Positions 5,060-44,700 of a stretch of DNA of 64,000 nt are shown in pieces (position 1 is the stretch's first letter; each line of letters opens with the position of its first letter). The position numbers and the translations under genes were made by a program. The DNA is from Phorcus lineatus (lineage: Eukaryota > Mollusca > Gastropoda > Trochida > Trochidae), in the NCBI GenBank assembly GCA_921293015.1, contig OV121097.1:18537924-18601923 (forward strand). Direction: 5' to 3'. The notes beneath the pieces are model-generated. The model worked only from the letters and a program-made list of their open reading frames with translations, was not told the DNA's origin and made no database searches.

Positions 5060-5675
5060 TTTGACCGCACCAATGTTTATTTCCAATTCTTAAGACCAGT
5101 ATTCTTAAGACCAGCATTTATAGTCCATCCATTACCAAACCCGGTTTTTATTGGAACAACACCGTTTAACGTTGATTAGCTCAATTGTAATTCAGTCGCT
5201 CTATTACTTAGCATGATCAGTGTTAAATAGTTATATTGAAAGTCAACATATTATAGTCTAAAGACATGCATTCTAAATCTATCTTTCATATGATAATAAA
5301 ACCATTAAACCTCACGTTTGTTTAATCTAATTGCAACCATGTAAGTATGTTCTTTACGTAGCGTCGTTTTCAATTGTATGACATCGGGTTTAGATGTCTT
5401 TCTCAAGTATGTCTCGTAATAACTTACCTTGTAGCCGTGTTATCTGTTAATTAAATTTTCCATTAAGAATAAATAAAAAATAAAAATAAATACACTTATC
5501 TTCAGATTCAACTGACAGCATGTTGAACAGGATTACAAAATGCAAGATTCAAGATTCAATTTTATTATTGTACAAATATGTCTTGCCGACCTCTTCTAAA
5601 TCAAACGTACTTAAGCAGTTAAATAAGCACTTGGAAGATGAATAACTCCATATTGATATAGGCTTTATGTATATA

Positions 5676-8948: not shown

Positions 8949-8950
<2 letters not shown>

Positions 8951-8983
<33 letters not shown>
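8951..8983. repeat. (AT)n microsatellite, left border
   Basis: A run of about 16 AT dinucleotides directly abutting the left inverted terminus at 8985. A matching tract lies at 25625-25650 next to the right terminus. Confidence 0.95.
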
Positions 8984-8984
<1 letters not shown>

Positions 8985-9299
8985 GTACAGTTATTACCTT
9001 TTTGACCATATAGCAAAATTGTTACCTTTTTGGCTCATTTTTTATTAGCTGCAAAATGACTTATTTAAGACTGTTAAAATATTAATTATCATTAAGCTAA
9101 CAATAAAAAGTGGTTTTGAACAGTTAATTGTTATTTTTGAATTTTTTATGAGAATTATATTTTTTGGGAGCCAAAAAGGTGGAGCCAAAATTGTTAGGCA
9201 TTTTTGTTCAAGCAAAATTTACAATTTTGGCTCTTAGCAAAATTATTACCTTTTTGGCACACCATGTTATCGCATATATATTACAGTTTTGGCACCATG

Positions 9300-10326
9300 T
9301 AAATAAGCACAATATAGTTATTCCATTAGATTCTATTATTTCTTTCATATATAAATTGTTCTAAACCTAATTGTTTGCATAAAAATCTCAAAAATGTGCC
9401 GTTTTACATCCTACGGTAAAATATTCATCATTCCTTCTCTCCCCAAAACTCATTTAGGTAATAACCAATATTCAAGAGTATTTCACTTATTCTGTGGCTG
9501 CTAATATTATTGGAGGGAGAAAGCCCACAACACCATGGTGGCCATGCAATGCGGTGAAGCCTGTGAAACCTGCAAGCATCTGCTGGAACTAGCAAACCAT
9601 TAGTGGTAGTGCAGTGAAATTCAGTATTGCACCTAAATAACTCAATGCGTGTAGAACAGTTCCCTACTGCAGACAAAGCCTCTGGCAGGATTTGAATTCT
9701 TGAATTTCAAACATTGACAGCCGGAAAGTCAGTTTGCCATGAGCATATTTCCCTTTTCAATAATTGCTTAATCAAACTTAATACATCACAGATATGCCTT
9801 TTTTGGCTTAGCCTTATGCTTGATTGACCTTTATAGATCTTAAGCCAATGATTTCAACAAATTTATGTAACAAAATATTTTACTGCTTCACAGTCATGTT
9901 GAAACAGAAGACATAAATGATTTGATTATTTTTTATTGCAAACACAGAAATCTGTATATATTTTTTTACATGCATTTTGATCGTTTCCACTGAAGTTTCC
10001 ACTATGATCTCCTGAAACAGAACATGAAGTTCCATCACAATGTCTGTGTAACTCTGTAAATATCAAAGAGCTATATCTCAATAGACATGGCATGGAAGGA
10101 CAAGCTATACAAGCAATCCGAAATGGCAAATTATCATTTGAATATCGAGGAGAAAGCAGAAAAACTTTCACTTAAGCAGACGAAGACTGATTATATTTAA
10201 ACGTTTTGATGTCGGGTCAAAAACAAATAAACAAAAAAATATTTTCAATATTCACATTGATTTTTTTTAATAACAATCTAGAACATTAAGTCTCATAACA
10301 AAGGTGTTATTCTGAACAAAACTTTC
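9300..10326. other. Gene-free stretch
   Basis: AT-rich sequence with no recognisable protein. Short open frames on the minus strand (9428-9676, 9926-10171) show no domain or codon pattern that I can support. Confidence 0.5.
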
Positions 10327-10334
10327 CACTACAA

Positions 10335-10607
10335 CACCCTGCTACATCAGCGTATTTGTCACTGCCCACCTCCATCATATACCCTGATACCCTGATATCC
10401 TTTGGCCTAAAACGCTTGTATCGCTAAATATAGCAAGCTAATGAAATGACTCGCATTCAGCAATAGCGACTTCAAAGAAATGTCAATTTAGGCAATAAAT
10501 AGCCATGAGTAACCAGCTGTAAGCAATACAAGCTTTATAGGCCGAAGGATATCAGGGTAAAGAGAGTCTCAGCTAGGCGGAGACAAAAACGCTGATGTAG
10601 CAGGATG
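10335..10607. mobile_element. hAT-type MITE with perfect 8-bp target duplication
   Basis: A 273-bp element flanked on both sides by CACTACAA (10327-10334 and 10608-10615). The left end is CACCCTGCTACATCAGCGTA; the right end, complemented, is CATCCTGCTACATCAGCGTT. The inverted arms continue inward with ACCCTGATATCCTTTGGCCT against ACCCTGATATCCTTCGGCCT and CGCTTGTAT against AGCTTGTAT, so the arms are about 95 bp. An 8-bp duplication with CA...TG ends is the hAT signature. There is no coding capacity, so it is non-autonomous. Confidence 0.88.
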
Positions 10608-10789
10608 CACTACAAACTGGTCTTGGTTAACCATCCTATAGTTGCACCCCTGCAACACCCTTATCTGTTAGATCATCAGTGAGATTTCAGATCTTATCCA
10701 GAAGAGGTCTGCTCAAAATTATGCAATTTTACAATCTCTCAAAGTACAAAAGAAATTACAAATAAAAACTAGAAATGGAATCATTGCTA

Positions 10790-13700
10790 GTATGTCAAAT
10801 TTCTAGCATATATATTACCATTTTGGTTCAATATGTATATATTTCAGATGAGATCTGTTCCAACACTTTCCCTTTGACACTCTCTCCAAGTCCAAAGAAG
10901 CAGTTTATATTCTATAGATTAGTATCTTGGCTACAACAAGAGCCCAACTACAAGTAGATCTTACTTATTCATCTTACATATATATTACCATTTTGGCTCA
11001 CAAGCCCTTAGGATTACATCTCAGATGAGATCTGTTCCGACTTTTGCCTTTTGACACTCTCTCCAAGTCCAAAGAGATCAGTTTACATTCTACCGATAAG
11101 TATCAAAACTACTACAAGATCTCAATTACAAGTAGTTCTTACTCCCTTATATATATATATTACCATTTGGCTCACAAGCCCTTAGGATTACATCTCAGAT
11201 GAGATCTGTTCCGACTTTTGCCTTTTGACACTCTCTCCAAGTCCAAAGAGATCAGTTTACATTCTACCGATAAGTATCAAAACTACTACAAGATCTCAAT
11301 TACAAGTAGTTCTTACTCCCTTATATATATATATATTACCATTTTGGCTCACAAGCCCTTAGGATTACATCTAAGATGAGATCTGCTCAAACTTTTGCCT
11401 TTTGACACTCTCTCCTAGTCCAAAGAAGCAGTTAATATTCTACAGATAATTATCACAGCTACCACAAGAGCCCAATTACAAGTAGCTCTTACTTCTAGTA
11501 TATAAATTACCATTTCGGCTCACAAGCCCTTAGGAGTATAGCTGAAATCTATTCCAAATAATATCTTTTGAAACTCTCTCCAAGTCCAAAGAAGCAGTTT
11601 ATATTCTATAGATTAGTATCACAACTACTATAAAAACTGAATTAAAAGTAGGTATTACTTTTAGCATAAAAAATAAGAAGGCAACAGGAATATATCTAAG
11701 ATGAGACCTGTTCCAACTTTTGCCTTTTGACACTCTCTCCCAGTCCAAAGAAACAGTTTACATTCTACAGATAAGTATCAAAACTACTACAAGATCTCAA
11801 TTACAAGTAGTTCTTACTCCCTTATATATATATTACCATTTTGGCTCACAAGCCCTTAGGATTACATCTAAGATGAGATCTGCTCAAACTTTTGCCTTTT
11901 GACACTCTCTCCTAGTCCAAAGAAGCAGTTAATATTCTACAGATTAGTATCACAGCTACCAAAAAAGCCCATAATTACAAGTAGCTCTTACTTCTAGCAT
12001 ATATATATTACTTTTTTGGCTCACAAGCCCTTAGGATTACATCTCAGATGAGATCTGTTCCAAATAATGCCTTTTGACACTTTCTCCGAGTCCAAAGAAG
12101 CAGTTCATATTCTACAGATTAGTATTACAATTTCCATAAGAGCTAAATTACAAACAGGTCTTTCTTCTAGCATATATATATTACCATTTTTGCTCACAAG
12201 CCCTTAGGATTACACCTTAGATGAGATCTGTTCCAACTTTTGCCTTTTGACACTCTCTCCCAGTCTAAAGGATCAGTTTATATTTTACAGTTTGGTATCA
12301 CAATTTCAATAAGAGCTCAATTACAAACAGGTCTTTCTTCTAGCATATATATAACATTTTGGCTCACAAGCCCTTAGGATTACACCTTAGATGAGATTTG
12401 TTCCAATTTTTGCCTTTTGACACTCTCTCCCAGTCCAAAGGATCAGTTTTTATTTTACAGATTAGCATCACAATTTCCATAAAAGCCCAATTACAAGTAG
12501 CTCTTACTTCTAGCATAAATATTACCATTTTGGCTCACAAGCCATTAGGATTCCATCTCGGATGAGACCTGTTCCAACTTTTGCCTTTTGACACTCGCTC
12601 TCAGTCCAAAGAAACAGTTTATATTCTACAGATTAGTATCTCAGCTACCAAAAAAGCCCATAATTACAAGTAGCTCTTACTTCTAGCATATATATAACCA
12701 TTTTGGCTCACACGCCCTTAGGAGTTCATCTCAAATAAGACCTGTTCCAACTTTTGCCTTTTGACACTCTCTCCCAGTCCAAAGAAACAGTTCGTATGCT
12801 ACAGATTAGTATCACAGCTACCACAAAAGCCCAATTACAAGTAGCTCTTACTTCAAGCATATATATTACCTTTTTGGCTCACAAGCCCTTAGGATTACAT
12901 CTCAGATGAGATCTGTTCCAAATAATGCCTTTTGACACTTTCTCTGAGTCCAAAAAAGCAGTTCATATTCTACAGATTAGTATCACAATTTCCATAAGAG
13001 CTCAATTACATACAGGTCTTTCTTCTAGCATATATATTACCATTTTGGCTCACAAGCCCTTAGGAATACACCTTAGATGAGATCTGTTCCAACTTTTGCC
13101 TTTTGACACTCTCTCCCAGTCCAAAGGATCAGTTTATATTTTACAGATTAGTATCACAACTTCCATAAGAGCCCAGTTACAAGTAGCTGTTACTTCTAGC
13201 ATATATATTACCATTTTGGCTCGCAAGCCCTTAGGAGTACATCTCAGATGAGACCTGTTCCAAAGTTTGCCTTTTGACACTCTCTCCCAGTCCAAAGAAA
13301 CAGTTTATATTCTACAGATTAGTATCACAGCTACCAGAAAAGCCCATAATTACAAGTAGCTCTTACTTCTAGCATATATATTACCATTTTGGCTCACAAG
13401 CCCTTAGAATTACATTTCAAATGAGACCTGTTTCAACTTTTACCTTTTGACACTCTCTCCCAGTCCATAGAAACAGTTTATATTCTACAGATTAGTATCA
13501 CAGCTACCAAAAAAGCCCATAATTACAAGTAGCTCTTACTTCTAGCATATATATATTACTTTTTTGGCTCACAAGCCCTTAGGATTACATCTCAGATGAG
13601 ATCTGTTCCAAATAATGCCTTTTGACACTTTCTCCGAGTCCAAAGAAGCAGTTCATATTCTACAGATTAGTATTACAATTTCCATAAGAGCTAAATTACA

Positions 13701-15005
13701 AACAGGTCTTTCTTCTAGCATATATATATTACCATTTTTGCTCACAAGCCCTTAGGATTACACCTTAGATGAGATCTGTTCCAACTTTTGCCTTTTGACA
13801 CTCTCTCCCAGTCTAAAGGATCAGTTTATATTTTACAGATTAGTATTACAACTTCCATAAGAGCCCAGTTACAAGTAGCTCTTACTTCTAGCATATATAT
13901 TACCATTTTGGCTCACAAGCCCTTAGGAGTATATCTCAGATGAGACCTGTTCCAAATTTTGCCTCATAACACTCTCTCCCAGTCCTAAGAAACAGTTTAT
14001 ATTCTACAATTTAGTATCACAGCTACCAAAAAAGCCCATAATTACAAGTAGCTCTTACTTTTAGCATATATATTACCATTTTGGCTCACAAGCCCTTAGG
14101 AGTACATCTCAGATGAGACCTGTTCCAAATTTTGCCTTTTAACACTCTCTCTCAGTCCAAAGAAACAGTTTATATTCTACAATTTAGTATCACAGCTACC
14201 AAAAAAGCCCATAATTACAAGTAGCTCTTACTTTTAGCATATATATTACCATTTTGGCTCACAAGCCCTTAGGAGTACATCTCAGATGAGACCTGTTCCA
14301 AATTTTGCCTTTTAACACTCTCTCTCAGTCCAAAGAAACAGTTTATATTCTACAATTTAGTATCACAGCTACCAAAAAAGCCCATAATTACAAGTAGCTC
14401 TTACTTTTAGCATATATATTACCATTTTGGCTCACAAGCCCTTAGGAGTATATCTCAGATGAGACCTGTTCCAAATTTTGCCTTTTAACACTGTCTCCCA
14501 GTCCAAAGAAACAGTTTATATTCTACAATTTAGTATCACAGCTACCAAAAAAGCCCATAATTACAAGTAGCTCTTACTTTTAGCATATATATTACCATTT
14601 TGGCTCACAAGCCCTTAGGAGTACATCTCAGATGAGATCTGTTCCAATTTTTGCCTTTTGACACTTTCTCCCAGTCCAAAGAAGCAGTTTATATTCTACA
14701 GATTAGTTTAAAAACTACCATAAGGCCAAATTACAAGTAGCTCTTACTTCTAGCATAAACATTACCATTTTGGCTCACAAGCCCTAAGGATTATATCTCA
14801 GATGAGATCTGTTCCAACTTTTGCCTTTTGACACTCTCTCCCTGTCCAAACCAAATCACATATATACTCTACTGATAAGTATCACAATTACCATAAGAAT
14901 TCAAAATTACAAGTAGGTCTTACTTAAAGCATATATATTACCTTTGAGGCTCACAAGCTTTTAGGATTTTATCTCAGATGAGATCTGTTTCAACTTTTGC
15001 TTTTT
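10790..15005. repeat. ~172-bp satellite array, about 24 copies
   Basis: Tandem units each carrying TATATATTACCATTTTGGCTC, ACAAGCCCTTAGGATTACAT, CAGATGAGATCTGTTCCAAC, TTTTGCCTTTTGACACTCTC, CAGTCCAAAGAA and CAATTACAAGTAGCTCTTAC. The spacing of GGCTCACAAG is about 172-177 bp in the left copies measured (10995, 11169, 11346, 11518). The copy near 11640-11700 is degenerate. Neighbouring copies group into subtypes (GGATCAGTTTATATTTTACA against GAAACAGTTTATATTCTACA), and near-identical runs recur (12004-12300 against 13550-13850; three near-identical copies at 14050-14560). Bivalves have comparable 160-170-bp satellites linked to mobile elements; relationship to those is inference. Confidence 0.92.
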
Positions 15006-15260
15006 TGCCATCCTTTCTCATCAGCCTATCTATAATGGTCACGTGGTTCCTGTGGTCCCAAGAGGTCATGGTTTCACCAAATCTATATAATAGAATCCCC
15101 ATCAAGTCTCTATACAAGATTTCACCTTTTTTGGCCTCTGGCTTCTGGAGAAGAAGATGAAAATAGGCTTATAGGGTGTGGACCCATGAGGTCACATGGT
15201 CAGAAGTATTTAATTAGAATCCTCATGCAGATGGACAGATGTCAAATGAGCTAAATTGTG
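15005..15260. repeat. ~145-bp bivalve-type repeat, locus 1
   Basis: Diverged copy of the family also at 16060-16690 and 17811-18198. It shows TCACCAAATCTATATAATAG, AATCCCCATCAAGTCTCTAT, GGCTTCTGGAGAAGAAGATG and ends near AATGAGCTAAA. Follows directly on the 172-bp satellite. Confidence 0.7.
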
Positions 15261-16059
15261 AGGGGATGCCCCCAGGCCCTTATGAGGGGCAACAGGGTTT
15301 TAAATACCAATTTGCCAAGGTGTCTGATCTTAGGATTTTTGGTGTATAGAGCGAATGGATTTAGAGAGGAAGTAAAAAATAGAGCCATGGGCTCTGTAGT
15401 TCATCACACTTTTGATAGGAATAGGTGTTTGGGTTTAGACCATGGGGTCATGGGCAGTGTAGGAAAGATAGCTTGTCCCAACGTCCGAGACGGGTAACTT
15501 TGCTTGAGGACAGGCTGTAAAATTATCTAGTCTGTCCTTGTGTCGGGCCAATTTTGTCTAACCATAAATGCATTTATATCTAATAACCCCGAGAGAAAAA
15601 ATAAACAAAAGTAAATAGCCACATAAATTACGGACTAAAGGGCACTTAGCAGGTTTTGTTCATTAATAATTAAATTACAGCAAAACTAAAATATTTTTTT
15701 TCAAATTATGCTCTCTTGGATAAGAAAATTCAGATATAAGTAAATCAAATCAAGTGACAAACGTGTTTACTTGAGTCAAGCAACTGAAACGTCAATCAAA
15801 GTCTTAGTCGACTTGGTGAAATAGCTGAAAGATTGCCGACACGCTAAACACAATCTCACTCACACCAAGCTTGAGGGATGGACAAGACTTTAGACAGTGT
15901 TTGAAGGGCTAAAAAAAAGTCGATTGATTTCCATAAATGCATCTATCTTAAAACAAATCCCTAAAACTTTATGATTCAGTTTTGATTCAAATTTTGTCAC
16001 TCCATGATCCCTACATGAAAATGGACGTGTCCATCCATGCTGAGAGAGGGGACTGATGA

Positions 16060-16692
16060 TGTGTCTTTGGGTCAAGGGGTCACTGAACCTACAATTCAGA
16101 ATCCCCATTGTCTAAGGAGTCTACACACAACAATTAAGCTATCAAGACCTTTTGGAACTGGAGAAGAAGATGAAAGTAGGATTTTAAGGTTTTGACCCCT
16201 CTGACCCCATTTGGGGTCAAGTGGTCACCAAACCTACAATTTAGAATCCCCAGTGTCCAAGGAGTCTTCACACAATTTTTCAGCTCTCTAGACCTTTTGG
16301 AACTAGGGAAAAAGATGAAATAAGGTTTTTTAGGTTTTGACCCCTCTGACCTCATTTGCGGTCATGGGGTCACAAAATCTACAATTAAGAATCCCCATTG
16401 GCCAAGAACTCTACACACAACTTTTCAGCTCTCTGGACCTTTTGGAACTGGAGAAGAAGATTAAAATAGATTTTTAAGGTTTTGACCCTTGTGACCCCAT
16501 TTGGGGTCATGGGGTCACGAAATCTACAATTTAGAATCCCCATTTGCCAAGGAGTATGCACATAAAATTTCAGCTCTCTAGAGTCATTGGTTCTGGAGAA
16601 GAAGTCGAAAAAGTGAAAAGTTTACGGATGGACGGACGCCGGAAGCCATGCCATGCCATAAGCCCATCGGGTCTTTCAGACCTGATGAGCTA
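16060..16692. repeat. ~145-bp bivalve-type repeat, tandem locus 2 with terminus
   Basis: Four tandem copies of a unit containing GGGGTCACNAAATCTACAAT, TTAGAATCCCCATTG, CAGCTCTCTAGACC, TTTTGGAACTGGAGAAGAAG and TTTTGACCCCTCTGACC. The array ends with GGATGGACGGACGCCGGAAG, CCATGCCATGCCATAAGCCC, then GGTCTTTCAGACCTGATGAG and CTAAAA. The GACGGACG tract and GATGAGCTAAAA terminus are a common repeat end in bivalve genomes as I recall them; the element class is uncertain. Confidence 0.85.
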
Positions 16693-17810
16693 AAAATGTT
16701 AAAAGTTTACAGATGCGGGACAACATGCCGTGATGTAAACCATCGGCATAATCAAAGTCTACATTGGTGCCGAGGAAACAGAAAAAAATAAAATTGATAT
16801 AGAACTTAAACCCACAAAAGGGGCATCTACATGAATAATAGGGAGAATACCAAATATAGTGAGGATGGGTCAAATGATGGTAATGATATGCTCCAGAAAA
16901 AAAACCTGACCCTTCTGAGTCATGGCCTAGAAATTAAAACATCTTGGAATCATGTACATCATGAAATTATGGTCGGATGCTAATACATTGTGTCTCTCAA
17001 ATTGCTTTTTTGGGAAAATTATCACTAATAAGTGTTACTATATCATGTATATTCAAAACATATATCATATATATGAACATTTGTGAAGCCAAGCCCATTT
17101 GTCTTACTAGCCCATTGAAGACACAACTGAAACTAACAATGAAAATAATAGTAGACTTTTCTCCCAAACCTGCAATGTCACTTTGAAAGGGTGAAAGGAA
17201 GGCCAGGCCTGCAAGCAGTCACTAGAGGTCGAGTCCTGCTGCTCGTCCTTGACAAAATCGCGTAACTATAAAAATAATATAAAACTTTTAAATTTGAAAC
17301 AGTAAGTAACTTAACATCAATAGTTACAAACAGACTGAGTAAGCTGAAAATGTTGTGATATAAACTGATTATGATAATGAATTTTAGTTTTCAACATATC
17401 ATTAATCACTCACACTTTTGCGTAAGAAATTGAAATATCAAAATTTGTCAATATATTCTGAAGCTGTCATTACTTATATGCCATGTTACAACCATTTGTT
17501 ACAACCATTTGAAACATTAACTGGAGTTGAAAGTAATCACTAAATACATTAAAATAGCTGAAACATCTGGAAAAACTATTTTCAAACTACCATACCAACA
17601 GTCATTTACATATTCTGATCCTTACAGACCTGAATTGGACAATGTGAACAAGATTTTATGCAAGGACATAAAATATGTAATTTACAAACTATACCGCGTC
17701 ACGTATGACATAGACTGAACATTATTTGTTCAATGCATTACGTGCAAAAGTAACTTGTAAGTTGAAAAAGCTAATGATGGTTAGATATGCTGTTGAATCT
17801 CTGTTTTCAG

Positions 17811-18198
17811 CTAAAAAGGTCTCTTGCTTCTGGAGAAGATGAAATAAGCATTTGGGGCAGGGTCCCTGTGGCCTAAATAAAGGGTCACTGGGTCACCAAA
17901 TTGATAAATTAGAATCCTATCAGCTAAGGAGTCTATAAACAAAGTTTCAGGCCTCTTGCTTCCAGAGAAAAAGATGAAAATAGGTTTTAAGGCATGACCC
18001 TGGTGGCACTTATTAGATGTCACAGGATCCCCAACCTGTAAAGTAGAAACCTCATTAATCAAGGAGTCTGTAGCCAAGATCTCAGGTTTCCTGAGCCAAT
18101 GGTTCTGTAGAAGTAGATGAAAATCTCACAGGTGCTGGACACTGGATGCCATGACATTTCATAAGCCCATTTGGCCTATCAGGCAAGATGAGCTAAAA
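17811..18198. repeat. ~145-bp bivalve-type repeat, locus 3 with terminus
   Basis: Two to three units (GGGTCACCAAATTGATAAAT, TAGAATCCTATCAGCTAAGG, AGAGAAAAAGATGAAAATAG) followed by the same terminus: GACACTGGATGCCATGACAT, TTCATAAGCCCATTTGGCCT, GGCAAGATGAGCTAAAA. It has the same orientation as the copy ending at 16692. Confidence 0.8.
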
Positions 18199-20473
18199 CA
18201 ATACAAGTATCCAAGGGTTGCAGATGATATTTTAATCATAACCAACAGACGTTGATGTATTAGATTACAGAAGATATAAGGTTTAAATATAATTTGTCAT
18301 CTGAAAATCTTTACTCAACAATTACATGTAACATAATTAGTATCTAGACAGAAATCTGCCATTATTGTTTCTTGAGTAGTGAGGGCACATCAATCAGATT
18401 TTATCAACCATACAAAGCCATACTTATAAAGATGAAATCACCAATCTCATTAGAATAGTATCTAAAATTCGGTTGTTTAAAACTTACCCTGCTTGATCGT
18501 TTAAGATCTCATGCTTTCAGCCTGATAAAGACATCCTGATGACCTGTGGCCTGGAATAGACCCCAAATTACTCTGCACAGCGTTAGGTTATCATCCATGG
18601 GGACAAGCAACTCGTTCAGGTTTCATAAGATCTTCAGTTCACTTATCCACCATTGACCTGAAAAAAAGCAGAATGAAAGTTTAATAGAAAATACTTAATG
18701 TGGGTGAATTGGAGTCAAATATGTGCGCACACTGATTCAGTATTGTCACCACCTCTGGTGTGCAGTACACAACCAAAAGCACTTGAGAGAACCCACAAAT
18801 CTATTAGTAAATGACTGTTGGTGGGCATATGAAAACATGCAAACACCTAGTTGGGAATACAGCAATAGCAGAATAATTGTTCAAAATCATGTGACAATGT
18901 GTCAATTCATCCAGCTTTGAATCGGTACATCGCAAAAATGTGCATGAAACTTGGACCTGGTGCATTAAGGTGCAAATGTTGCATACTCCATAAGAAGCTG
19001 ATGTTGAAAAAATGTGTAATGAAGGGTGATATCAAGTGATTGAGGGGAAAAAAAGCCTGTATGAGCAGCAACGCTGGATTTTGATATTTTTTTTATTTTT
19101 ATATATTTTAATGTTGATATGAAGATGTCGTTGAATTGTGTCTCCAAGCATTACTTGGAGAGAAATGAAATAAAGGATCAAGGATGAACAATCTTCCCTT
19201 CTATTTGAGGGACATTCAAGACCAATTTACAAACTTTGTCTAAAAATGTGAGCTTCATATACCAGTTGGTTTCTTAATATGATCCCGTGAAAATAGTTGC
19301 ACAAAAATTGTGAAAAGTTTGACAGACGATGCCAAAAAGACCCCAGAAGATTGGCAATGCCCTAAAACCACCTGGCTTTAGAGGCCAGACAAATAATAAA
19401 CAAATAATAATAATACTGCACATTTGTATATTTTACATATAAAAATACATGCTGAAGACAATAATTTTAAAAAGTATCAATAAAAAGATTATGTCATTCT
19501 GAAAACTTTACCTTCTACATAAATTTTGTAGAAAAGACCCAAAAAATCAATTTCAAGGAGCCAGGTGCAAATTTAATAAACCTAGAAAAATTTAGATTGC
19601 CTTGCTTCAAGTTCAAAGGATTCAAAACAATAAGCTCGTTAAGCCTTATGAGCCCAATGAGCAGAAAATTAAATCATTTTCTCTTTAGATATACAGACTG
19701 TACAATATTTACTATAAAGCATCTAAATAAAAGATATCTGCCAACAGAAGTTTAACTGCCATATTGATAATCAAGTCCACAGTTCAGAGGCAAAGTTCCT
19801 GTGGTTGTTGTAGCCCTTATTGTGAACCTCAGGGCCAACAAATATACAATTAATAGTCCTATGAAGCACTTCCTGCTTTTTGCTCTGAAGGTAAATAAAT
19901 ATATATAAGGAGGTGACACACTGGCCATTTTAAGTGGCCGCATAGTCCCATATCATAAAATTGATTACCTTTATTGGATAAGTGACATCCACACAACATT
20001 AACACTTTCCAGGACTCCACTTTCTGCAGCAAAATATTAAATAGATTTTAAAGGCTTTCATTCTACAATAGCTTTATCTAAGAAGTCTGTTTACATCCCT
20101 TCAGATCTATTAGGCTTTTTGTTCTGGTTAAAAAGCAAATACAGCATAATCTCAAAGGATAGCAAAAGGTTTATTGATAACTGAACACTAGAATCAATGC
20201 CATTAGCCAATCATAAGATAAAATTTTATAGAATAAAATCATTACATTAGATATACTTTGACTTACCTGGAGAATAATAGTTTCACATTCATACAGCCAA
20301 CACTAACATTTTGCCCCCATGGCTTTTTTGACCGAGGTCAATGTAAGTCAGCGGCCAGTTAATTCCTGCAATGTTTCATAACTAGAATCAGAACAAGATG
20401 TCTCATGGTATCATACCAACCATCATAAGACTTCTTTCATCTCCCCTCATCCAAAAAACCAATAAAATAACTA

Positions 20474-21233
20474 CAGTCGGTGGCCAAAAGTCTGTTCGCA
20501 CTGGTGATGTCACGGCTATTTTTAGAGTTATCAACCCCAAAGTTTAAATGAGCATATCTATGTATATAATAGGTACTTACCCAGAAATTTCAGAATTTAG
20601 GAGATATGACCCTGAGCCCAAAGTACATCTCGTCTTCGTATCGGCAATCTGTCATAAAGACTTCGATTGTAGACTGGACTAAGCCCACTCCAAATGTCAT
20701 TCACTACACAGATAGATCCTGTCTCAAGTCAATGTCACCTAATCTTGCTTTCAGCTGATACTTAACAGTTTTCCATACATTCTCAATGATATTAAGATCT
20801 GAGCTTTGTGTTGGCCACGGCAAAGTAGGAATATGATTTTAGTGTTTCCAACGATTAGCCCAAATGGACACATGACAAGGAGCATTGTCTTCTTGAAAAA
20901 TCCAGTTGCGATTAACAAAATGTCTGGCAACAACTGGCCATAAATGGTTGTCAAGAATGGTTATGTAGTTGTCTGTGTTTATGTTGCCATCAACAACCGT
21001 TAAAGTTCCAACACCAAATGCAGACACGGCCAAAACATTACTGAAAACTTCGAATTTCGTTCATTATCGGCTCGAGTTCCAAAACAAACAGGCAAGCGCT
21101 CACTAGACTTCCTCCACACGTAATCTTTTCTATCTTTCCCAATCTGTATTTGAGTTTAATCAGCGCTTTCAAAGTTAACCTAGCCCAATGGCAACGTAAC
21201 ATTGTTTGCGAAAAGACTTTTGGCCAACGACTG
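20474..21233 (-). mobile_element. Tc1-like transposon, internally truncated
   Basis: A 760-bp copy between TA dinucleotides (20472-20473 and 21234-21235). Terminal inverted repeats: CAGTCGGTGGCCAAAAGTCT at the left; CAGTCGTTGGCCAAAAGTCT at the right on the complement. The minus strand keeps decayed pieces of the transposase catalytic half: YVWRKSSERLPVCFGTRADN, TVVDGNINTDNYITILDNHL, NRNWIFQEDNAPCHVS and IPTLPWPTQSSDLNIIENVW. The FQEDNAPCH block contains the second catalytic Asp and ENVW the third acidic residue. The DNA-binding N-terminus and first catalytic Asp are missing and the frame is broken, so it is inactive. Confidence 0.9.
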
Positions 21234-22049
21234 TATATATTGAGATCCAGTCATTGTGTGTTTCATAAAAAAAACTGTACAACACAACTCTAGTTTTTAC
21301 AACCTTTTTACATTTTAAAAGTCTGAATAAATGAGGGATTTTTCAATTATTTTTAATTTTTCTCAAACCTGTCTAAAACAAATCAAAAGTTATCTTGAAA
21401 GAAAATGTGATGGTCTTTCTCTAAGATACTTAAATAAACCTTTTCATAAAATGTCTATAATTACCTTTTACTGCATTGTCATTCATATAATTTTACTATA
21501 TGGGTCAATCTTCCCATATAGGTAATAAATATACCATTGAAATAAAAATCAAATGTTACCTTCGTTAAGACATTAACTCTTTTAGTCAAACTATAAGCAG
21601 TCGTTTAGAAAAATAAAATGTCAAATCTTTACATTATGACTGAAAATAAAATTACTGACCAATAAGACTTACCATTGCGCTGTTTTACCATCAAATTTTT
21701 AAACTGAGGCCCAAAGCTCCTTTTGTCCTGTTAAAAAACAAAAATATCAACATATGGTCAAGTTTGTATCAATAATATTTGTTTTTCCATATCTTTCATA
21801 ATGATATGGAGTGCTAAAAGAATTATCATCACTAAAATCCACATCTTTGGTCTTTATAGCTTGTCTTTGCTGACAAATTGAATTTGAGGGGGTTAATTTA
21901 TCTAAGTAACAGTTAGAACTGAAACACTGTCTTTGTTACAAATATTTGTGATCATGGACTACAATGATCAATTCGATTTATGTCTTAAAGGTTTCTGATA
22001 TAGCAGCAATGATGTTTTCAACAGATTTGATATCTAATGGCATAAATCC

Positions 22050-24090
22050 TGCATCTCTATGTACACTCAAGTAACCTGTTTTCATGGCCACCTATTTCAC
22101 AGTATTTACAAATGATTAAGTTATCCTCTTACTGGCCATGACCAGTCAGCAGTTATTTTATTGATGGGTTGTTCTTAGCTGCAGAGATGTAACTACATAT
22201 TCTATTTTGGCTAGGCAACTGTAGCTATAGGTTGTTTTACATGGTCCCAAGCAGGAAATGGTCATTTTTTCATCCATCAAATTATATTTAATAATTCTCT
22301 TCAGTGATGAAAATTAAATGAAATTTTATGCTTTTCATGTATTACTATTTTTGGAGAAAACTTATGTTTGATTCTAAAAGTAAAATCGCAATAAAGTTTT
22401 TTCAAATAATATTTTCCTGTGAAGCTATATTGATCTTATCCTGAAACACCTAATATTGGGGTGTAATCTGTTCTATTGATGAATAAGTGAAATCATAGAA
22501 AGCTTATTTCTTATATATATTTTGGTTATTAGTAGAATTTTCTTTTGCAAAGAAAGCAAGTTATTAATCGAACAGTTAAACATTGCTTGGATTGCTCACA
22601 TTAAATCTTTAGCCGCATTAAATACAAGACATTTTGTGACTAAAAGGTTTCCTATGCCAAATTTACACTGAACAGAAGAATGACTTTTTTAACTTGACCA
22701 GAAATATGACATTTTATGTTCAATATTTGTGAAAATAAAATAATAATATGACTAAGTAAATACTTTCAAAATGTGTCAATGTTAAATTAAAAGCTATTTT
22801 TCACTATAAATCTGGCCTAAGAGTAATTTAGGGGTGCAAATGACGAGGTATCTAAAATGTCTATAAAATGCTACCTAGTCCTTGAAAATACTAAAAGCTG
22901 TTATAAGTGACTGTAACATATTGTATAATTAGGCATCCTGGCGTTTGGTTGCAAAAAGGAAAATCATCATGAATTCGAGCGATTTTCAAGTTTGGTTGCA
23001 GTCCCTTACAGGCAACTGCTACCACATTATTTTTTGTCAAATATTCATCATTTTTCATGTCTTGGCTAATAAAATTTTGGTTGCGGGTAATAAAAATTTG
23101 TTTTGAAAAGCTTACCAGATCAAATTGTTTGCAGCAGACTTCAAATTTACCTAACTTCAAAACGATCAAATCAACAGTTTCAGTTTGACATGTTCCCTCT
23201 GACACAATGTGTCACGTAATGCCATGCGCTACGTAACAGGTCTTTCAATTGGCTAATTCAGTATCAGACAGACATTAACATTTTCTATAAAATTTTGATG
23301 TTCCTTTTTCATTATTCATGATTGATTTTGATCGTATTTTTTAGATAGAAACTAGTCAATAAACTTACTTGCTGATGTTTATTTTCCATCAAAATTAGTT
23401 TGTAATCAGAGGCATCTGTTACAGCCAATGATACCATGGAGTAACCTGTTTTCATGGGTCACCTGTTTTCGTGGTATTTATAAAAGATGTCTATTCTCTC
23501 TAACCCCTTACTGCAGCCAGACATGTTAGCACTTATTTTATTCACCAGTTGTTCTGAATTGATCCAAGAAGGAAATGATCACTATTTCCTCAGTCTATTC
23601 ACTGATTCATTTCAGTGATGAAAATCAAATGAAATTTCATGCTTTTCACATAACACCTTTTTTGGACAACATTTATGGTTCATTATAAAGGATACAATCC
23701 ATGTATAATTTTTCAAACATTTTTTTCCAGTAAACCTATGTTATTCTAATCCTGAATCACCTGACTTTTGAGTATAATACCTGTTCTACTTAAAAATATA
23801 TGGAATCATAGAAAGGTTGATTCTTATATATTTTTGGCTATTTTGTAAGATTTTCCGGTGCAGAGAAAGCAAGTTATTGCTTGCAAAGTTAAACTTTGCA
23901 TTGCTTGCTAATATTAAATCTTTAACTACTTGAAATGCAAGGTATTCGGTGACTAGAAGATTTTCTAATACTAAATATGCTCTAAGCAGCCTCATGATTT
24001 CTTTACTTTACCAGAAATAGACATTTTATGATAAATATTGACGAAAGTGAAATACTTCAATGACCCTGTAAATATTTTAAACACATGTCA
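22050..24090. repeat. Diverged direct duplication of ~700 bp
   Basis: The segment 22060-22760 recurs at about 23430-24080. Shared blocks: GTAACCTGTTTTCATGG, TTCAGTGATGAAAAT(T/C)AAAT, CATGCTTTTCA, AATCATAGAAAG, CTTATATAT(A)TTTTGG and GAAAGCAAGTTATT. The word CCTGTTTTCATGG also appears reversed near 24193 and, as CCACGGAAA(T/C)AGGTA, near 24358 and 24735. No protein was recognised in either copy. The 23415-23369 candidate exon lies just before the right copy. Confidence 0.7.
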
Positions 24091-25624
24091 ACATCAATTT
24101 AAATGCTATTGTACACTATCGATCTGTGTTTAAAAGAAAGGAAAAATTGAAGTTGTTACATGCGTTGTATTCTCATAATTTTATATAATAGAAATACCAT
24201 GAAAACAGGTGACACCAAATAAATTAATAACAATTTGCATCTGTTTTTAAAATGTGAAACTGTTTGTTTAACATTACCTAGTTGAAAAATATGTACTCTA
24301 TCACTTTATGATGTTTAGGAAGTTTGACATTATCTTATAGAAGATTATTTCTTATTACCACGGAAATAGGTAACACGAGGGTAATTTAGTTGAGATTTTA
24401 CTGCCATTCGAATTCGTCTTGGGGCCACATTGTAAAAACAACCGGCAATTTAGGAATAATTTTGTCAAGGAATAAATACTTACCAAGACATGATAAACTA
24501 TAGAGAATGTTAGATTCAAGGTTAGTAGAAAATTTCCATCCACTTTGTCAGAAAAGACAGCAAAGGACAACATGATCGAAAACTCGACTCGGTAGCTTTG
24601 AGCAAGTTGCCAATGTTTCATTAAAATGTAAATATACAGCCAGGTAAAGTTCCAACAGTTGCCACGTCATCATTTAGTTTCTCTCTGCAACCAGATTATG
24701 TTTAGTCAAGACTAAATTATACTCAAGATTTAATACCACGGAAACAGGTAGCTAACACTACGATACAACTGTGCCGAAGTGACACAAACAAGGCCAAAAC
24801 GGTGATAAGACTGATTTACGACAGAGTCAAATCAGTGCTACTATCTTTTTTATTACTAAGATATTCAAATTTGCAAACATTAATTGGTATACTCACTGTG
24901 AATACATGAAACAGCAACGAAATGAAAGTCGGGCAGCCACTTGAAATGGAATGCTTGCGATGTTCACTTCCGGCGCGCTCAAATCGTGTTTACGATAAAC
25001 TTTTCAGTATTTTGTTTATAGATGAAAATACCAAAAGAATAAAATACTCCTTATGCATTTAAATTAGTAGCATGTAATAGAATAATAGGCATTAGATCTA
25101 ATATATCGACTTAATTATTACTATTAGCATCATATATGGTTCTCCGAAATTGTTACGCTGCGCTGCGACTGGAGCCAAATGACAAGAATGATCGGCGACC
25201 AACTCTGATTGTGCGGCTGGATGTATAAAAAGGAAAAACTTATTTGAATATATAAACGATATGTTTTTGCATTTATTTTATCACGTAAATCAGCCTATTA
25301 TATGCTAAAAGTTTGGATGTCATTATATACATTCAGTCTCGAGATTTAGCTGATCAAATATCGTGTGCCAAAAAGGTAAACCGAGATTATACATGAAAAT
25401 ATTTTCATGATTTTTACCAAAAAATATTTGTCAACAATTTTCATTTTCAATTCCATATACCTCTAACAATACCAAAAAAGTATATTAGCTAATAATAAGA
25501 TGTTCAGAAGTGTTGGATTTATTTGAATAGCCCGATGTTATTTTGGCTCCTCAAATGTGAGCCAAAAAGGCAGATGAGCCAAAAAGGTTCATGTATAAAG
25601 CCCAAAATGGTAATGATTGTACTA

Positions 25625-25650
25625 ATATATATATATATATATATATATAT
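25625..25650. repeat. (AT)n microsatellite, right border
   Basis: About 13 AT dinucleotides directly following the right inverted terminus (25574-25622). Confidence 0.95.
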
Positions 25651-25865: not shown

Positions 25866-26470
25866 AACTAATATTAAATCACAGCCGCTTTCTTTACACT
25901 GTCTTGTACTAGACTTTCAGGATAGTTTTGTATCAATAAAAAATCCTTGAGTTCTTTTAAACGTTCCCTCTTTTGTGTGTCATCTGTTACAATAGCACAA
26001 ATTCTTCTAGCGAGACAGTACGGGATGTTACGCTTAGTATGACTTGGATGACATGATTGAAAGTCCAGATATTGATGTGCATCTGTATAGGTTTATAGTA
26101 CAAATCCGTCTCTAACCGACCGTCCTCTTTTACAATGGAAACAAGTGACTCTAATTTGAATTTTTTGGACGTGACCGTGGTTGTAAAAGAGGACGGTCGG
26201 TTAGAGACACAGGGGCGTGTATCGCTTAGAAATAGCTTTAGAAAGACATATATACCCATAGACCCTACCCTACTACTATAGTAGAGTAGGGTCTATGGGT
26301 ATATATGTCTTTCTAAAGCTATTTCTAAGCGATAAGTAGGGTAGGGTCTATGGGTATATATGTCTTTCTAAAGCTATTTCTAAGCGATACACGCCCCTGT
26401 GGTTAGAGACGGATTTGTACTATAAACCTACAGATACACATCAATATCAATATCAGTATCAATATATATA
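25866..26470 (-). mobile_element. Penelope-like element RT remnant with fold-back rearrangement
   Basis: Minus-strand translation of 26160-25866 with frameshifts gives pieces of a reverse-transcriptase C-terminus: VKEDGRLETDLYYKP, HQYLDF-like residues, SCHPSHTKRNIPYCLARRIC, then RERLKELKDFLL. The TDLYxKPTDTHQYLxxxSCHPxHTKxxIPY block is characteristic of Penelope-like retroelements. Plus-strand copies of part of the same coding segment follow: LDVTVVVKEDGRLET at 26167-26211 and LETDLYYKPTDTHQY at about 26403-26447. The copies form nested inverted repeats, including a perfect 28-bp stem (GTCTCTAACCGACCGTCCTC ... at 26108-26135 with 26182-26209) and a ~57-65-bp arm (26208-26272) with two inverted copies (26277-26333, 26336-26400). 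Confidence 0.8.
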
Positions 26471-35303: not shown

Positions 35304-38300
35304 ATGCTGTCTGCTTCCCACTCGGTTGTGCTGGTGAGTACTTGCTTCAAACTATCTATGGAACTAGCTTTACTACTATCAACACTACTAGCGTCATACC
35401 TTCATATTTTCTTATAAAGTACTGGCTTCATACTATCTATTGTAAAATATTCAAACTAAACTGACGGGCAAAAGTTAGTAAATGGCTATTTTGACAGCAT
35501 GTAACAAAGCCATACAACAACATTTCTTCTCTCAACTCACAATCAAAAACCACTTACGATCTAAATAACAACAAAAGTGCAAGTTCTTTGTTAAACGTCT
35601 TTGACATCTTGATCCTCAAACACACATGGGGTCGATTATCTCGGAATCAATCGTGACAGAATAAACCGGGGCAAAGTTAATGAGTCACTGGATGGATCAT
35701 TCATTAACAAGAGCGTCAGTAACGGATGTGGCCACCCTCTGCGTCGATGCATGCCCTCAAACCTCATTGACGTTGTCAAACGGCGGATGACGTATTGGGA
35801 ATGTGGTTCCACTCTTCCGTCAGGGCTTGCTCTAGTTGTTGTCTATTCTGTGGAACTTGTTGTCGTCTTCTGATGTGTCTGTCCAGATGATCTCATATAT
35901 GTTCAATAGAATTCATATCCGTTGAGAAGGCTGGCCACGGCAAAACATCGATGTTAATTCTCTGCAGAAAGTCACGGGTCTCTCTGGCAGTGTGGGGTCC
36001 CGCATTGTCCTGTTGAAAGATGACACCCTGGGGTTGATTCTGTATGAAAAGGTACCGCAACAGGCTGTAAAATCTGTCCAATATTCCTACGCGCATTGAT
36101 ATTTCCTTGCCCATCGAACTCTGTTTTGGCGACATCTGAGGGTCAGGACCATGCCGCGGAAGGGCCGATAAGCCCTAATACCAGCAGCTCGCAATCTTCG
36201 GGTCACTGTGCGTCGACTTACACGATGTCCCAGTGCTGTTTCCGCCGTAGCCGTCGCTGTCACAAACCTGTTCCTGAGATGAATTGTCCAGATGTCATGG
36301 TCTTCCCGGTCTGAAGTAACCCGTGGTCGTCCACTTCTTGGTCTGACTTGGGTACTACCAGTGTTACGGTAACGTGAGAACAGCCTAAAGATTGTTGCTA
36401 GCGTGCAGTTGAAGGTTCTCGCAATCTGAGCTTGAGAAACTCCCATATCTCTCATTCCAATGGCTCGCTTTCTCTGTATTTGCGTTAACTTCGGCATTTT
36501 TTCATGTGCTTTCACTCACTGTGAACGATCCGATTTATACCCCTCTGTGGCACGCGCATTTAATAAAATTTGAAAAAGTTCTATTTTACCATTTTCTCGT
36601 GTTATTGATCACTTGACTTCATGCAGTGAAATCACGTGCATTTTGTAGTATTCGAACAAGACACACAATGTTTGTTTCCGTTATTGCAGTGATACACAAT
36701 TTTTCTACAAAACGATTTGAAAACGTTATACTAACTTTTGCCCGTCAGTTTATCAATACATCAAGCTTCTGTCACGGTATATCGAGGTCTAAACTCAGAT
36801 GAGAGCCGTTTATCCTGCAGAAATATAAAACAATATAATAATCAAGCCAATAAAAGTAAGAGAGAAGCAGTGAGTGAATAAAGTGAATTATTTGTACAAG
36901 ACGACACAAAGATTACGATAACTGACTACCCGTAGACAAATCATCAGTTAACAGCTAATCAGAGAAGTAAACTACCCGTGAATAAACAATAGACAAGCAC
37001 TAAGCAATCACTCTAGCGTAATACCAACCAACAATTTTAAACAACAGGACAGGGCTAATGGCCGTCTGGCGTGAAATAACAGGGAACCAACGGGAACAGA
37101 TAGGGACTAAATAGTAATGAATATAACAACAAGTACATAGTACTTTAGATAATCCCTTATCACTACTTGAGTGAATAAATAAATAAGACTACTAGATAGG
37201 CAAAGTAGAACTAATGAAAAATAATGGATTTGGGATGGTAAGGTTAAACTGTAGGTCTTTAAAGGAAGTGATCACATACTCCTATACGCTACAGAGAAGC
37301 AAAGGGATATTAACCTTAAAATTCTAACATCAGTACGTCCCAGAGTCTAGTCCCATCCATTACCTTGCGTGTCACTTCTGACCAGCGCCAATTCGTTCTT
37401 TCCACTAATTCTGTCGCAGCTTATAAGCAGCCAGTGCAGACGTAAGAGAAAGCCACTGTGGCGCATTTGAAATTTTAAAGCCTTAATTCAAGAGAACACG
37501 GAGTTGTGTTTCTTGTCTCCACTAAAAAAAGTCCTGTCTCCCATACTATCGGGGTTACAGTACCAAACAATGGCTTATTGTAACTAACTACTCTACAAGT
37601 ACATGTAAATATGAATACATATATCATCTAAAAAAGCTGGTAAAAAGGGCATGAAGAATACATTTGAACATTTAACAGTGGCCACAGTCGGCAAATTAAA
37701 AACATAAATGATGAAAGTTGATACATGAATGGACAGTACATAACATGTTCTTTCAATATATACAATAATTGGTACATTGGAAAAATACATTAGATGAGAG
37801 GCGGGGAAAGGAAGGATCGCTCGAAGAGCGTGACATTTCCCAGCCCTTAAATTAGAGGAAATTTGTCACATTACATTTGATAAAATTTTCGACAATATAA
37901 AAATACACAGTTTTCCGAACATATAAACAAGGCAGTGTCAATAGAATGTACGGTAGTCTCCCACGTGACGCTATTCCGCCTGGCAAGAATCCTCTTTTGT
38001 GCCGCGAAATTCCAGTATTGCTTGTGATATGTGTATCCGGCGGCACAATAACTCCCCCCGGCTGAAGATCCAAAGGTCAGTCACACTCTCCATCACACTC
38101 TCCATCAGACTCTCACACGGGGTAATCTCATCAGGCCTCGAAGCTCTGCTTTGAAATCCCTCCGCCGTCGCGGTTGGGTGATTCAACAGCAGTCACTGTT
38201 TGGTTTTGGTGGCGCCGGCTTGGTATTCTGTGCCCTGTCTTTGAAGCAGGCCGACAGTGTTTCGAGATGTTCTCGTCATCTTCAGGCTGTCAGTCCTTTG

Positions 38301-41711: not shown

Positions 41712-44700
41712 CTTTTGATAGAAGAAAATGTAATTGCTTTGCTCACCTTCGCCGCAACATTTACACTGTCTGCATGTTGTCTTATCTGACACCACTAACT
41801 GTGATCGAAAACAATACATAAATAATCCGGAGGTAAATGTACACGAGCTTAGTGAAAGGGAATAGTGGTAAATGTTTCGTCGATGAGCTTCCTAAACATT
41901 TGATTAAGTAATGCAGAATATCATCACCCTCTGAATAAGTCCACATATTAGAACACAGTAGTTTATAAAAAGTTAAATGTTAGTCTCTTCTCAGAAAACT
42001 GCTGTTATGTTTCTGCTGCAGGTATCCCCTGGCTGTTTTGAACCCAGAGTCGTTTCTAGCACTTTAATTTCTGATGAGTTAAGAACAACGATAAAACATC
42101 ACTTATGTTACAGTGTCATTGTGTTTGCCCCTCTTCTATCTTAGTTGTGGCTTTCTTAATGAAACTATGTCTGAATATTCTGCGACTTGCACTTAGTTTT
42201 ATTTACGTTCCATGAAACCATCTATGATCGCACAAAAAGCAAAAATGTTTTTATGTTAAGACATCTTTTTGGTGAGAAAGGAAACATTTACTCTTATTAA
42301 AAAAAAAATTTCATGTCAGACTCTCCTAGTGAGTATCTGTAGGTTATCAGGCCTAAAAGAGATGAGCTTCTGATGATCACCTTCCGTCTGTCCATTGACT
42401 CTAGAAATGAAGTTTCCCTGAAGAAGTTCCCTGGCTAATGAGAATTACAAAATGTAGATGTATTGAGTCTCTGACCTTAAAAGAGCAAAAAAGGCATCGC
42501 TTTATCCCATTTCAATCTTCATTTATTTTAACAAAGAGCTGAAAGCTGCATTTTTATTAACATACTCCCTATATAGCTAGTATATTTTCATTTTCTCTTG
42601 AATCATAGTGCGTTCAAAGCTCAAATGCTGTGGATTATCAAATTAAGTATCTGTAAATTGGTATTATAAACTGTAAACTGAATCAAATGTAAATATAAAG
42701 ATTAAAATTAGTATACAGATGCATGATGAACTACAAGGCAAGAGACAGCGAAAAAGGGTTTAATTGTAGTAAAATAGAAGGTAAGTATACAACAGACTCA
42801 CCTTTACGTTGGATCCTGTAGCTAAAGCTGCAGTAGGAGCAGCCATCTTGCCGTCCCAGAATCCCCAGAGCATGATCCCGTGCACCTGTGGAGTGCTGAA
42901 GTAGAGCGTCAGGACGTCCTCCAGAAGGTTGGCCTTGTGGTCAGCGTTTGGCTCATTGATGTCCAGCTCCGTTATCCACATTGGCAGTCCCAAAGCCACC
43001 AACGCGTCCAGGCGGTACTGGGGTTAAGAATAAGGGGCACTCATATATTATCACATTTTTGGATAAATCATAGGCGGAATACATGTCGTTTGGTACAGAA
43101 AGAGGGGAGAAGTAATTGGGTTGGTAAACGTGCCGTATTAACTGTTAACGCCGTGCGGATCGATTTGTATGCATATTGCTTTTTATATGATTAATTGTCA
43201 GTGTTACCCGTTATCAATTCATAAGAACTTGATATGAAATAACATTATTACTAGTTTAAAATACTCACATATTAAAGTGACACAGAGTATGTTTCATTAT
43301 TATTTAATTTGGTTTTAGTAAGAGCCAATTACCTTATGACCTGGTTTAACACAAAATCGCCCCCTAAACTTGCATCTTTATCTGTAAAATGCCAAAATAA
43401 TGATATTTTCTTGATTTCACTGATAATCGATGAAAGGGTCCTACAAATGTTCAGATTTCGAAATGATGTGTCCAATTAACATGTCTATTAGTTAGATAAC
43501 TTACTTAACACTATGAACCAATGTTTGTCTTTTGTATCTGATGTAAACAATTTTCCGAAATTACGTTTGATTCATTGGCGCGCGCCACTGTCCAGTTTTC
43601 GATCACAAATTGGGATATTAACCCGTTTATTGTCCGTATTAAGAGTTGATAAGCATTAGCATTCTGATTTTCTGAAACGATCACTACTTCTCAATGAAAT
43701 AACACCATTTATGAAGTTTGACTCATTTGACTCCAACAACATGATCTGTGCCCCTTTAGAGTAAAAATGATGAAATAAATAGAAAGTCTAAATGGTACGA
43801 ATCAATACCGGGTTTCATGTGGATAATCATATTAAGCTATATTTGGGTACTTCTCTCTCTTGTTTTATGTACTAACATGCATGCAGTTAAATGGGAAGAA
43901 TCTACACATATTTGGATATAGATACTTCTATATATTCAAAAGGGCCGAAACTATACAGGGGATGCTGATTAAACAGTTCATGAGACGACTTTTTTCTGGG
44001 TTTGATAAACATACTGATACAGAGTAAGTAAGGGGGAATCTACACTGGGTTAGATGTACATACTGATACACAGTAAGTAGAGGGGAGAATCTACACTGGT
44101 TTGGATGTACATACTGATACACAGTAAGTAGAGGGGGAGAATCTACACTGGGTTAGATGTACATACTGATACACAGTAAGTAGAGGGGAGAATCTACACT
44201 GGTTTGGATGTACATACTGATACACAGTAAGTAGGGGGGGGGGGAGAATCAACACTGGGTTAGATGTACATACTGATACACAGTAAGTAAGGGGGGGGGA
44301 GAATCTACACTGGGTTAGATGTACATACTGATACACAGTAAGTAGATGGGGAGAATCTACACTGGGTTAGATGTACATACTGATACACAGTAAGTAGAGG
44401 GGGAGAATCTACACTGGGTTAGATGTACATACTGATACACAGTAAGTAGAGGGGAGAATCTACACTGGTTTGGATGTACATACTGATACACAGTAAGTAG
44501 AGGGGGAGAATTTACACGGGTTTGGATGTACATACTGATACACAGTAAGTAGATGGGGAGAATCTACACTGGGTTAGATGTACATACTGATACACAGTAA
44601 GTAGAGGGGGAGAATCTACACTGGGTTAGATGTACATACTGATACACAGTAAGTAGAGGGGAGAATCTACACTGGGTTAGATGTACATACTGATACACAG

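What the first reader, a model, noticed from the sequence alone, without database searches (positions are those of the whole stretch)
8985..25622. 16.6 kb segment bounded by inverted termini set in (AT)n tracts
Ends at 8985-9037 and 25574-25622 are imperfect inverted repeats (GTACARTNATTACCWTTTTG...CCTTTTTGGCTCAT). A second inverted pair sits about 250 bp inside each end at matching distance, and each end abuts an AT dinucleotide run. The internal satellite unit carries the same TTACCATTTTGGCTCA word, as if the array were expanded from the terminus. This could be a large, undescribed mollusc DNA element that uses (TA)n targets and carries cargo and its own satellite.
Basis: partly seen in the sequence, partly recalled or inferred. 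Interest (0 to 1): 0.72.

Follow-up and report, generated by a model that had tools for sequence, protein, structure and literature searches.

The report
Giant transposon targeting TA microsatellites
The 16.6-kb stretch is one copy of a family of very large mobile DNA elements that sit inside TA-repeat tracts and carry a satellite array repeating the element's own end motif, which offers a natural case of a satellite that may have been born from transposon ends.

Summary
The window lies in a held 957.8-Mb genome. The terminus pattern GTACAATNATTACCWTTTTG occurs 133 times there, reversed control 0. Of the 100 places listed, 88 form 44 inverted left-right pairs 12.96-42.7 kb apart. An (AT)n of more than 20 nt abuts 29 of 30 left ends fetched and 9 of 11 right ends read. 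Two copies lie at the same (TA)n of a repeat whose flank-plus-(TA)n occurs 283 times; none of the 100 listed copies is within 3 kb of a listed terminus, so there the microsatellite came first. Four other complete copies align end to end with this one; the five carry 22-101 satellite units of about 171-173 bp that repeat the subterminal motif. Apart from a nested Tc1 relic no transposase was seen, but few ORFs were scanned. Best reading: a giant non-autonomous inverted-repeat DNA transposon moved in trans by an unidentified motif-binding transposase. Superfamily, TSD and autonomous partner stay open; the transposase search did not complete.

The parts
8950..8983 (.). left (TA)17 target microsatellite
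   Evidence: an AT tract beside 30 of 30 fetched left ends, more than 20 nt in 29, 10 nt in L010
8985..9037 (+). left terminus GTACAGTTATTACC... with first motif TTACCTTTTTGGCTCA (9022-9037)
   Evidence: 71 left-type sites in the genome with at most 1 mismatch (control 2)
9167..9297 (.). left subterminal repeats, both orientations (core TTTTGGCNC at 9168-, 9182-, 9225+, 9252+, 9287+)
10815..15005 (+). internal satellite, unit mostly 171-173 bp, most units with TTACCATTTTGGCTCA or a near form
10335..10607 (.). imperfect palindrome of about 270 bp, MITE-like; not in the aligned parts of copies C12 and C25
16069..16611 (.). 145-bp minisatellite, 3.7 copies
20466..21241 (-). nested Tc1/mariner relic (35-nt inverted ends; the same segment in copy C7 matches DDE_3); missing from C12 and C25
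23434..24185 (.). segment absent from copies C15, C7, C25, C12, near a pair of 25-nt inverted repeats (23458-23482, 24189-24213); probably a nested element
25364..25379 (-). right inner motif TTACCTTTTTGGCACA
25541..25591 (.). right subterminal repeats (core at 25541+, 25559-, 25576-)
25603..25622 (-). right terminus GTACAATCATTACCATTTTG
25625..25650 (.). right (AT)13 target microsatellite
   Evidence: long (AT)n beside 9 of 11 right ends read

Best explanation
A giant non-autonomous inverted-repeat DNA transposon. Shown: 71 left-type termini (at most one mismatch, control 2) and about 69 right-type ones, 88 of 100 listed exact ends paired as units of 13-43 kb; AT-tract insertion sites, pre-existing where tested; several subterminal motif copies at both ends (outer and inner); an array of 22-101 units that repeat this motif in the five complete copies. 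Inferred: a transposase supplied in trans binds TAGCAwAwwTTACCwTTTTGGCwCAC at the outer and inner sites of both ends, pairs the ends and integrates the unit into the unwound or cruciform-prone (TA)n, with a target duplication hidden by the repeat. The satellite probably grew from a subterminal motif by unequal exchange or slippage. It may act as a reservoir of binding sites that helps find or compete for transposase, or it may be a passenger.
For: Pairing of ends: 26 of the 40 best left ends pair with one of the 40 best right ends, about 0.025 expected; 44 proper pairs among 100 listed exact termini. End-to-end homology of C16, C7, C25, C12 with the window copy. Long AT tract at 29 of 30 left ends and 9 of 11 right ends. 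Paralogous empty sites for two loci. Two elements share one (AT)n at C16:47320901-47321010. Right end of C12 at 96-97% identity while the 600 nt just inside are 89-92%. Subterminal core layout the same in five complete copies apart from one left core missing in three. Low divergence: median 1.9% between 30 copies beyond alignment column 300. Motif shared by ends and satellite.
Against: No enzyme of its own is known: in the window copy and the element parts of seven other loci the longest listed ORF is 134 aa, only 10 of 88 window ORFs were scanned, and the only transposase match is the nested Tc1 relic. The genome-wide search for PF13359 was tried nine times and never answered (last). TSD cannot be read inside (TA)n. 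Left end L010 has only 10 nt of TA, and two right ends on C15 have short AT runs. None of the 44 pairs is a short MITE-like derivative, although cut-and-paste families often have them (recalled). 12 of 100 listed ends are unpaired in the list, and head-to-head and stuttered ends on C15 hint at a replicative or repair step. The left ends were chosen by similarity over their first 281 nt, so their conservation is partly selected.
Confidence: 0.68

Rival explanations
1. A Helentron-type rolling-circle element (HINE), like the satellite-carrying Cg_HINE elements of oysters.
For: Central array of about 170-bp units and AT-rich insertion resemble Cg_HINE (PMC7492417 passages).
Against: Ends are symmetrical with several inverted motifs on each side, not an 11-12-bp subTIR plus one 3' palindrome; the site is (TA)n, not TT or oligo-T; arrays of 22-101 units in five copies against a longest of 29 in Cg_HINE.
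Confidence: 0.1
2. A self-encoding element whose transposase gene is split into short exons on the minus strand.
For: Minus-strand donor-like sites, among them 24896, 24483, 23368, 21672, 20266 and 18487, some in locally conserved DNA; 9 such sites on the minus against 3 on the plus strand.
Against: About 8 per strand are expected by my own uniform-base estimate (no call); indels of 1 or 2 nt shift the frame of e5 in C16, C7 and C12, while those in e3 (C7, 9 nt) and e6 (C25 and C12, 6 nt) keep it; in C15, C7, C25 and C12 homology starts only 12 nt inside e3, so its acceptor is missing there; no Pfam match up to E 10 and one PDB match at E 0.83 for the joined peptide.
Confidence: 0.1
3. The (AT)n is made by the element (a terminal tail), not a target.
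For: An AT tract is present at every left end fetched and at the right ends read.
Against: The flank of L011 and L027 occurs 283 times followed by (TA)n, and none of the 100 listed is within 3 kb of a listed exact terminus; the pure tract beside left ends varies from 9 to 84 nt.
Confidence: 0.04
4. Two unrelated short insertions that happen to flank 16 kb.
For: Imperfect identity of the ends; alignment score only just above background.
Against: Pairing genome-wide and end-to-end homology.
Confidence: 0.01

Closest known systems
MuTAnT (Mutator-like, Medicago truncatula; PMC4486113, passages seen)
   Same: Inverted-repeat DNA element that targets (TA)n microsatellites; TSD hard to read for most copies
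   Different: 90% of MuTAnTs are 200-300 bp (putative autonomous one 4.9 kb); here 13-43 kb with a satellite, and no link to a MULE transposase was shown
Tetris and Galileo (Drosophila foldback elements; PMC4079207, passages seen)
   Same: Internal tandem repeats derived from the end region; in Galileo they hold extra transposase sites; Tetris seeds satellite arrays
   Different: Long TIRs with the repeats inside them and 8-10-bp TSDs (Tetris); here one array near the left end and short imperfect TIRs
Cg_HINE / CvA (bivalve Helentron derivatives; PMC7492417 and PMC5874043, passages seen)
   Same: Interspersed elements with a core of tandem units, 140-180 bp in Cg_HINE
   Different: Mostly up to 5 monomers, asymmetric ends, short microsatellite inside, T-rich target
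ISL2EU (PHIS; PMC4482050, passages seen)
   Same: AT dinucleotide TSD would suit an (AT)n target
   Different: No transposase found here and A|AT|T context not readable
Giant eukaryotic transposons (review PMC6431247, passages seen)
   Same: Size class
   Different: The review deals with large TEs for their coding content (Helitrons, Polintons, Teratorn, Terminons); none of its own was seen here

Membership tests
TIR DNA transposon (cut-and-paste class) | Paired terminal inverted repeats bounding a mobile unit | tested here: met
TIR DNA transposon (cut-and-paste class) | Target site duplication | tested here: inconclusive
   both ends lie in AT tracts, duplication cannot be read
TIR DNA transposon (cut-and-paste class) | DDE/D transposase in an autonomous member | tested here: inconclusive
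   only a nested Tc1 relic seen; 10 of 88 window ORFs scanned, ORFs of other copies listed but, two peptides apart, not scanned; family search busy
Mutator-like (MuTAnT type) | MULE transposase and a TSD of about 9 nt | not tested
   no MULE search was run; TSD not readable
Helentron/HINE | Asymmetric ends: subTIRs plus 3' palindrome, T-T insertion | tested here: not met
   symmetrical ends, AT-tract sites
Foldback (Tetris/Galileo) | Long TIRs containing the tandem repeats at both ends | tested here: not met
   in the five complete copies the array starts 1.3-1.8 kb from the left end and minus-strand motifs lie only near the ends
ISL2EU | AT TSD with A|AT|T context | tested here: inconclusive
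   target hidden in (AT)n
ISL2EU | PHIS-type DDE transposase | not tested
   family search PF13359 did not complete
Polinton/Maverick | pPolB, integrase and capsid genes (recalled) | tested here: not met
   this copy only: no ORF above 106 aa lies wholly between array and right end; ten of 88 ORFs scanned without a Pfam hit above cut-off

The most novel reading that the evidence does not exclude
The satellite is a working part: a mobile, self-expanding array of transposase-binding sites that recruits transposase and makes a 13-43-kb element with hardly any coding capacity mobile, moved by a transposase of a so far undescribed (TA)n-specific lineage. If the transposase were domesticated, such arrays would resemble how CENP-B-box satellites (pogo-derived binding sites in a 171-bp monomer; recalled, from no call) may have arisen.
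Probability: 0.2. Interest if true: 0.85.

Novelty: new variant of a known kind. Interest (0 to 1): 0.62.

Why it matters
Non-coding animal DNA transposons are mostly short (recalled). Here at least 45 units (44 pairs plus the window copy) of 13-43 kb exist, and in the copies read no enzyme of their own was seen. All five complete copies hold the satellite on the same side with the subterminal motif in its units, so the long-debated step from transposon end to satellite can be studied copy by copy. (TA)n as a safe, self-renewing target (two elements share one tract) is a second testable point.

Tried and rejected
Exon chain on the minus strand: joined and searched, then judged weak. Motif-versus-spacer footprint in 30 left ends: 8 of 177 motif-block sites vary against 6 of 134 spacer sites, no difference; together 14 of 311 sites vary against 89 of 689 beyond, but these loci were chosen by similarity over the first 281 nt. 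Rfam at gathering threshold: 0 matches in the window. Tc1/mariner membership by a TA target: not adopted, because AC before GTAC at 30 of 30 left ends and TA(A) after it at 11 of 11 right ends are constant and so look like part of the element.

Literature: searches (listings). PMC7492417, PMC4486113, PMC4067079, PMC4079207, PMC6431247, PMC4482050 and PMC5874043 seen as passages (the last also abstract and outline); PMC10294476 and PMC9587614 as abstract and outline; all others only as search listings.
Full report
1. Observation. The two ends and their AT tracts are at the stated places. The terminal 60 nt align inverted at score 35, reached by 0 of 5000 shuffled pairs (maximum 34); the five other flank combinations score 10-15. 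In a scan of 12,788 windows of 60 nt, places without an evident relation reach 30-31, so this alone is modest evidence. The 34- and 26-nt tracts are the longest of six AT tracts of at least 12 nt in the window. The core TTTTGGCTC is found 25 times inside 8985-25622 and 0 times outside. With the looser core TTTTGG[CG]N the left end has + sites at offsets 43, 177, 240, 267, 302 and - sites at 184, 198; the right end, read inwards, + at 15, 38, 55, 249 and - at 74.

2. Genome test. The window is G000:C39:18537924-18601923 in a 957.8-Mb assembly of 74 contigs. A search with 281 nt of the left end scored 40 of 72 candidates, all 40 at 98-100% identity; the right end gave 42 matches, 40 of 75 candidates scored. 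Of these 40 left ends, 26 have one of the 40 right ends in inverted arrangement 15.7-34.2 kb away, against about 0.025 expected by chance; one other arrangement was seen. An independent pattern search found 133 exact termini (reversed control 0), of which 100 were listed: 50 left-type, 50 right-type, 44 proper pairs (88 ends) of 12.96-42.7 kb, median 21.2 kb; 12 listed ends are not in such a pair. One of them, C25:31062741, faces a right end at 31078934, and C19:37971302 faces a left end with one mismatch at 37998982. Left-type sites with at most one mismatch number 71 (64 exact), control 2. The figure of 69 right-type termini is 133 minus 64, which assumes that the 33 unlisted sites are of the same two types. 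The search for right-type sites with one mismatch did not complete.

3. Anatomy across copies. Seven further loci, chosen from the best left-end hits, were read over 20-30 kb. Four (C16, C7, C25, C12) are complete and align with the window copy from end to end; C15 has a damaged right end facing a second, inverted copy; in C11 (34.2 kb) and C39 the right end was not reached. Lengths and motif-marked array units in register: window 16,638/23; C16 17,273/26; C7 16,472/26; C25 26,872/101; C12 12,963/22; the non-array part is 8.9-12.3 kb. Units were counted by the motif itself, so these counts cannot show how many units lack it. C12 and C25 form a diverged subfamily (interior mostly about 89-96% identical to the window) without the Tc1 relic. 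The right end of C12 is 96-97% identical where the 600 nt just inside are 89-92%; this end was not chosen by similarity. Motif matches with at most 3 mismatches in 44.4 kb outside the elements: 2.

4. Target. All 30 fetched left ends (the best 30 of 40) are preceded by an AT-dinucleotide tract ending in C before GTAC; pure tails, C included, run from 9 nt (L016, much longer beyond one G) and 11 nt (L010, really short) to 84 nt. Of 11 right ends read, 9 have a long (AT)n: window, C16, C7, C25, C12, L051, L053-L055; the two on C15 have short AT runs inside another copy's right end. At C16:47320901-47321010 two elements share one (AT)n. L011 and L027 have flanks 98% alike over 123 nt and lie at the same (AT)n of that repeat. 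The repeat junction with (TA)6T occurs 283 times (control 0); of 100 listed copies, on C1-C9, none is within 3 kb of an exact terminus listed for those contigs, the nearest being 3,124 nt away; matched letters were printed for 49 of the 100. At these two loci the microsatellite is therefore older than the insertion; that it is so everywhere is inference. The TSD cannot be read.

5. Satellite. 22 monomers give a 171-nt consensus. It shares blocks of 27-31 nt at 81-85% identity with four left subterminal repeats, one of which also has the GCATATATATTAC stretch. This fits birth of the unit from a subterminal repeat; outside this block no match over 21 nt to the two ends was found. Array length differs between copies, and C15 shows a period of about 2.56 kb, seen as the same ORF at 5350, 7911 and 10472. 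Whether the unit also occurs outside the element was not searched.

6. Coding. No ORF over 106 aa lies wholly between the array and the right end. Of 88 element ORFs of at least 45 aa outside the array ten were scanned; two gave Pfam hits below cut-off (E 0.05 and 0.09). In the seven other loci ORFs of at least 100 aa were listed, at most 12 per locus; inside the elements the longest is 134 aa, and of these only the C7 peptide of the Tc1 relic was scanned: DDE_3, E 1.5e-11. That relic has TACAGT-type ends of its own and is absent from C12 and C25, so it is probably not the element's enzyme. A splice-like exon chain on the minus strand was examined and judged weak.

7. Mechanism. Shown: paired ends, AT-tract sites, motif repeated at the ends and in the array, low divergence (median 1.9% beyond column 300 among 30 copies), which suggests recent spread. 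Inferred: trans-mobilisation by a transposase that binds the motif. Outer and inner sites about 250 nt apart recall the IR/DR layout of Sleeping Beauty (recalled, not tested). The absence of short derivatives among 44 pairs may mean that internal sequence helps transposition, as the reservoir model predicts, or that such copies have other ends.

8. Place among known kinds. It works like the (TA)n-targeting MuTAnT elements with Galileo/Tetris-like internal repeats, but size and layout differ, and membership in Mutator, P or PHIS was not tested. It is not a Helentron by its ends. I rate it a new variant of a known kind.

Noticed in passing
window 36087-36515 (-): Tc1/Tc3-type transposase ORF fragment (HTH_Tnp_Tc3_2, E 1e-11).
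   Followed up: partly
window 43996-49749: 5.7-kb array of a 52-bp unit.
   Followed up: no
window 56234-61002: Array of 265.8 copies of an 18-bp unit with overlapping long ORFs on both strands, up to 592 aa stop to stop.
   Followed up: no
window 26088-26430: Nested inverted and direct repeats (67-nt arms, 100%) about 440 bp beyond the right AT tract.
   Followed up: no
G000:C15:33564447-33564534: Stuttered right ends: a truncated right end, a second partial one and a full inverted copy in a row, which looks like template switching or repair.
   Followed up: partly
G000:C15:8412426-8450282: Two left ends facing each other 37.9 kb apart without an exact terminus between them.
   Followed up: no
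L015 1-1500: The left flank of this copy matches the element interior (window 22814-24713) at 83-86%, as if an older copy lay beside it.
   Followed up: no
right flanks of copies C7 and C12: By eye both hold the same repeat in opposite orientation; next to C7 an ORF with a GIY-YIG domain (E 4.7e-6), perhaps Penelope-like, starts near the (AT)n.
   Followed up: partly
window 40202-40879 (+): 225-aa ORF with a signal-like start and long aspartate runs, by eye; no Pfam match at E 0.01.
   Followed up: partly
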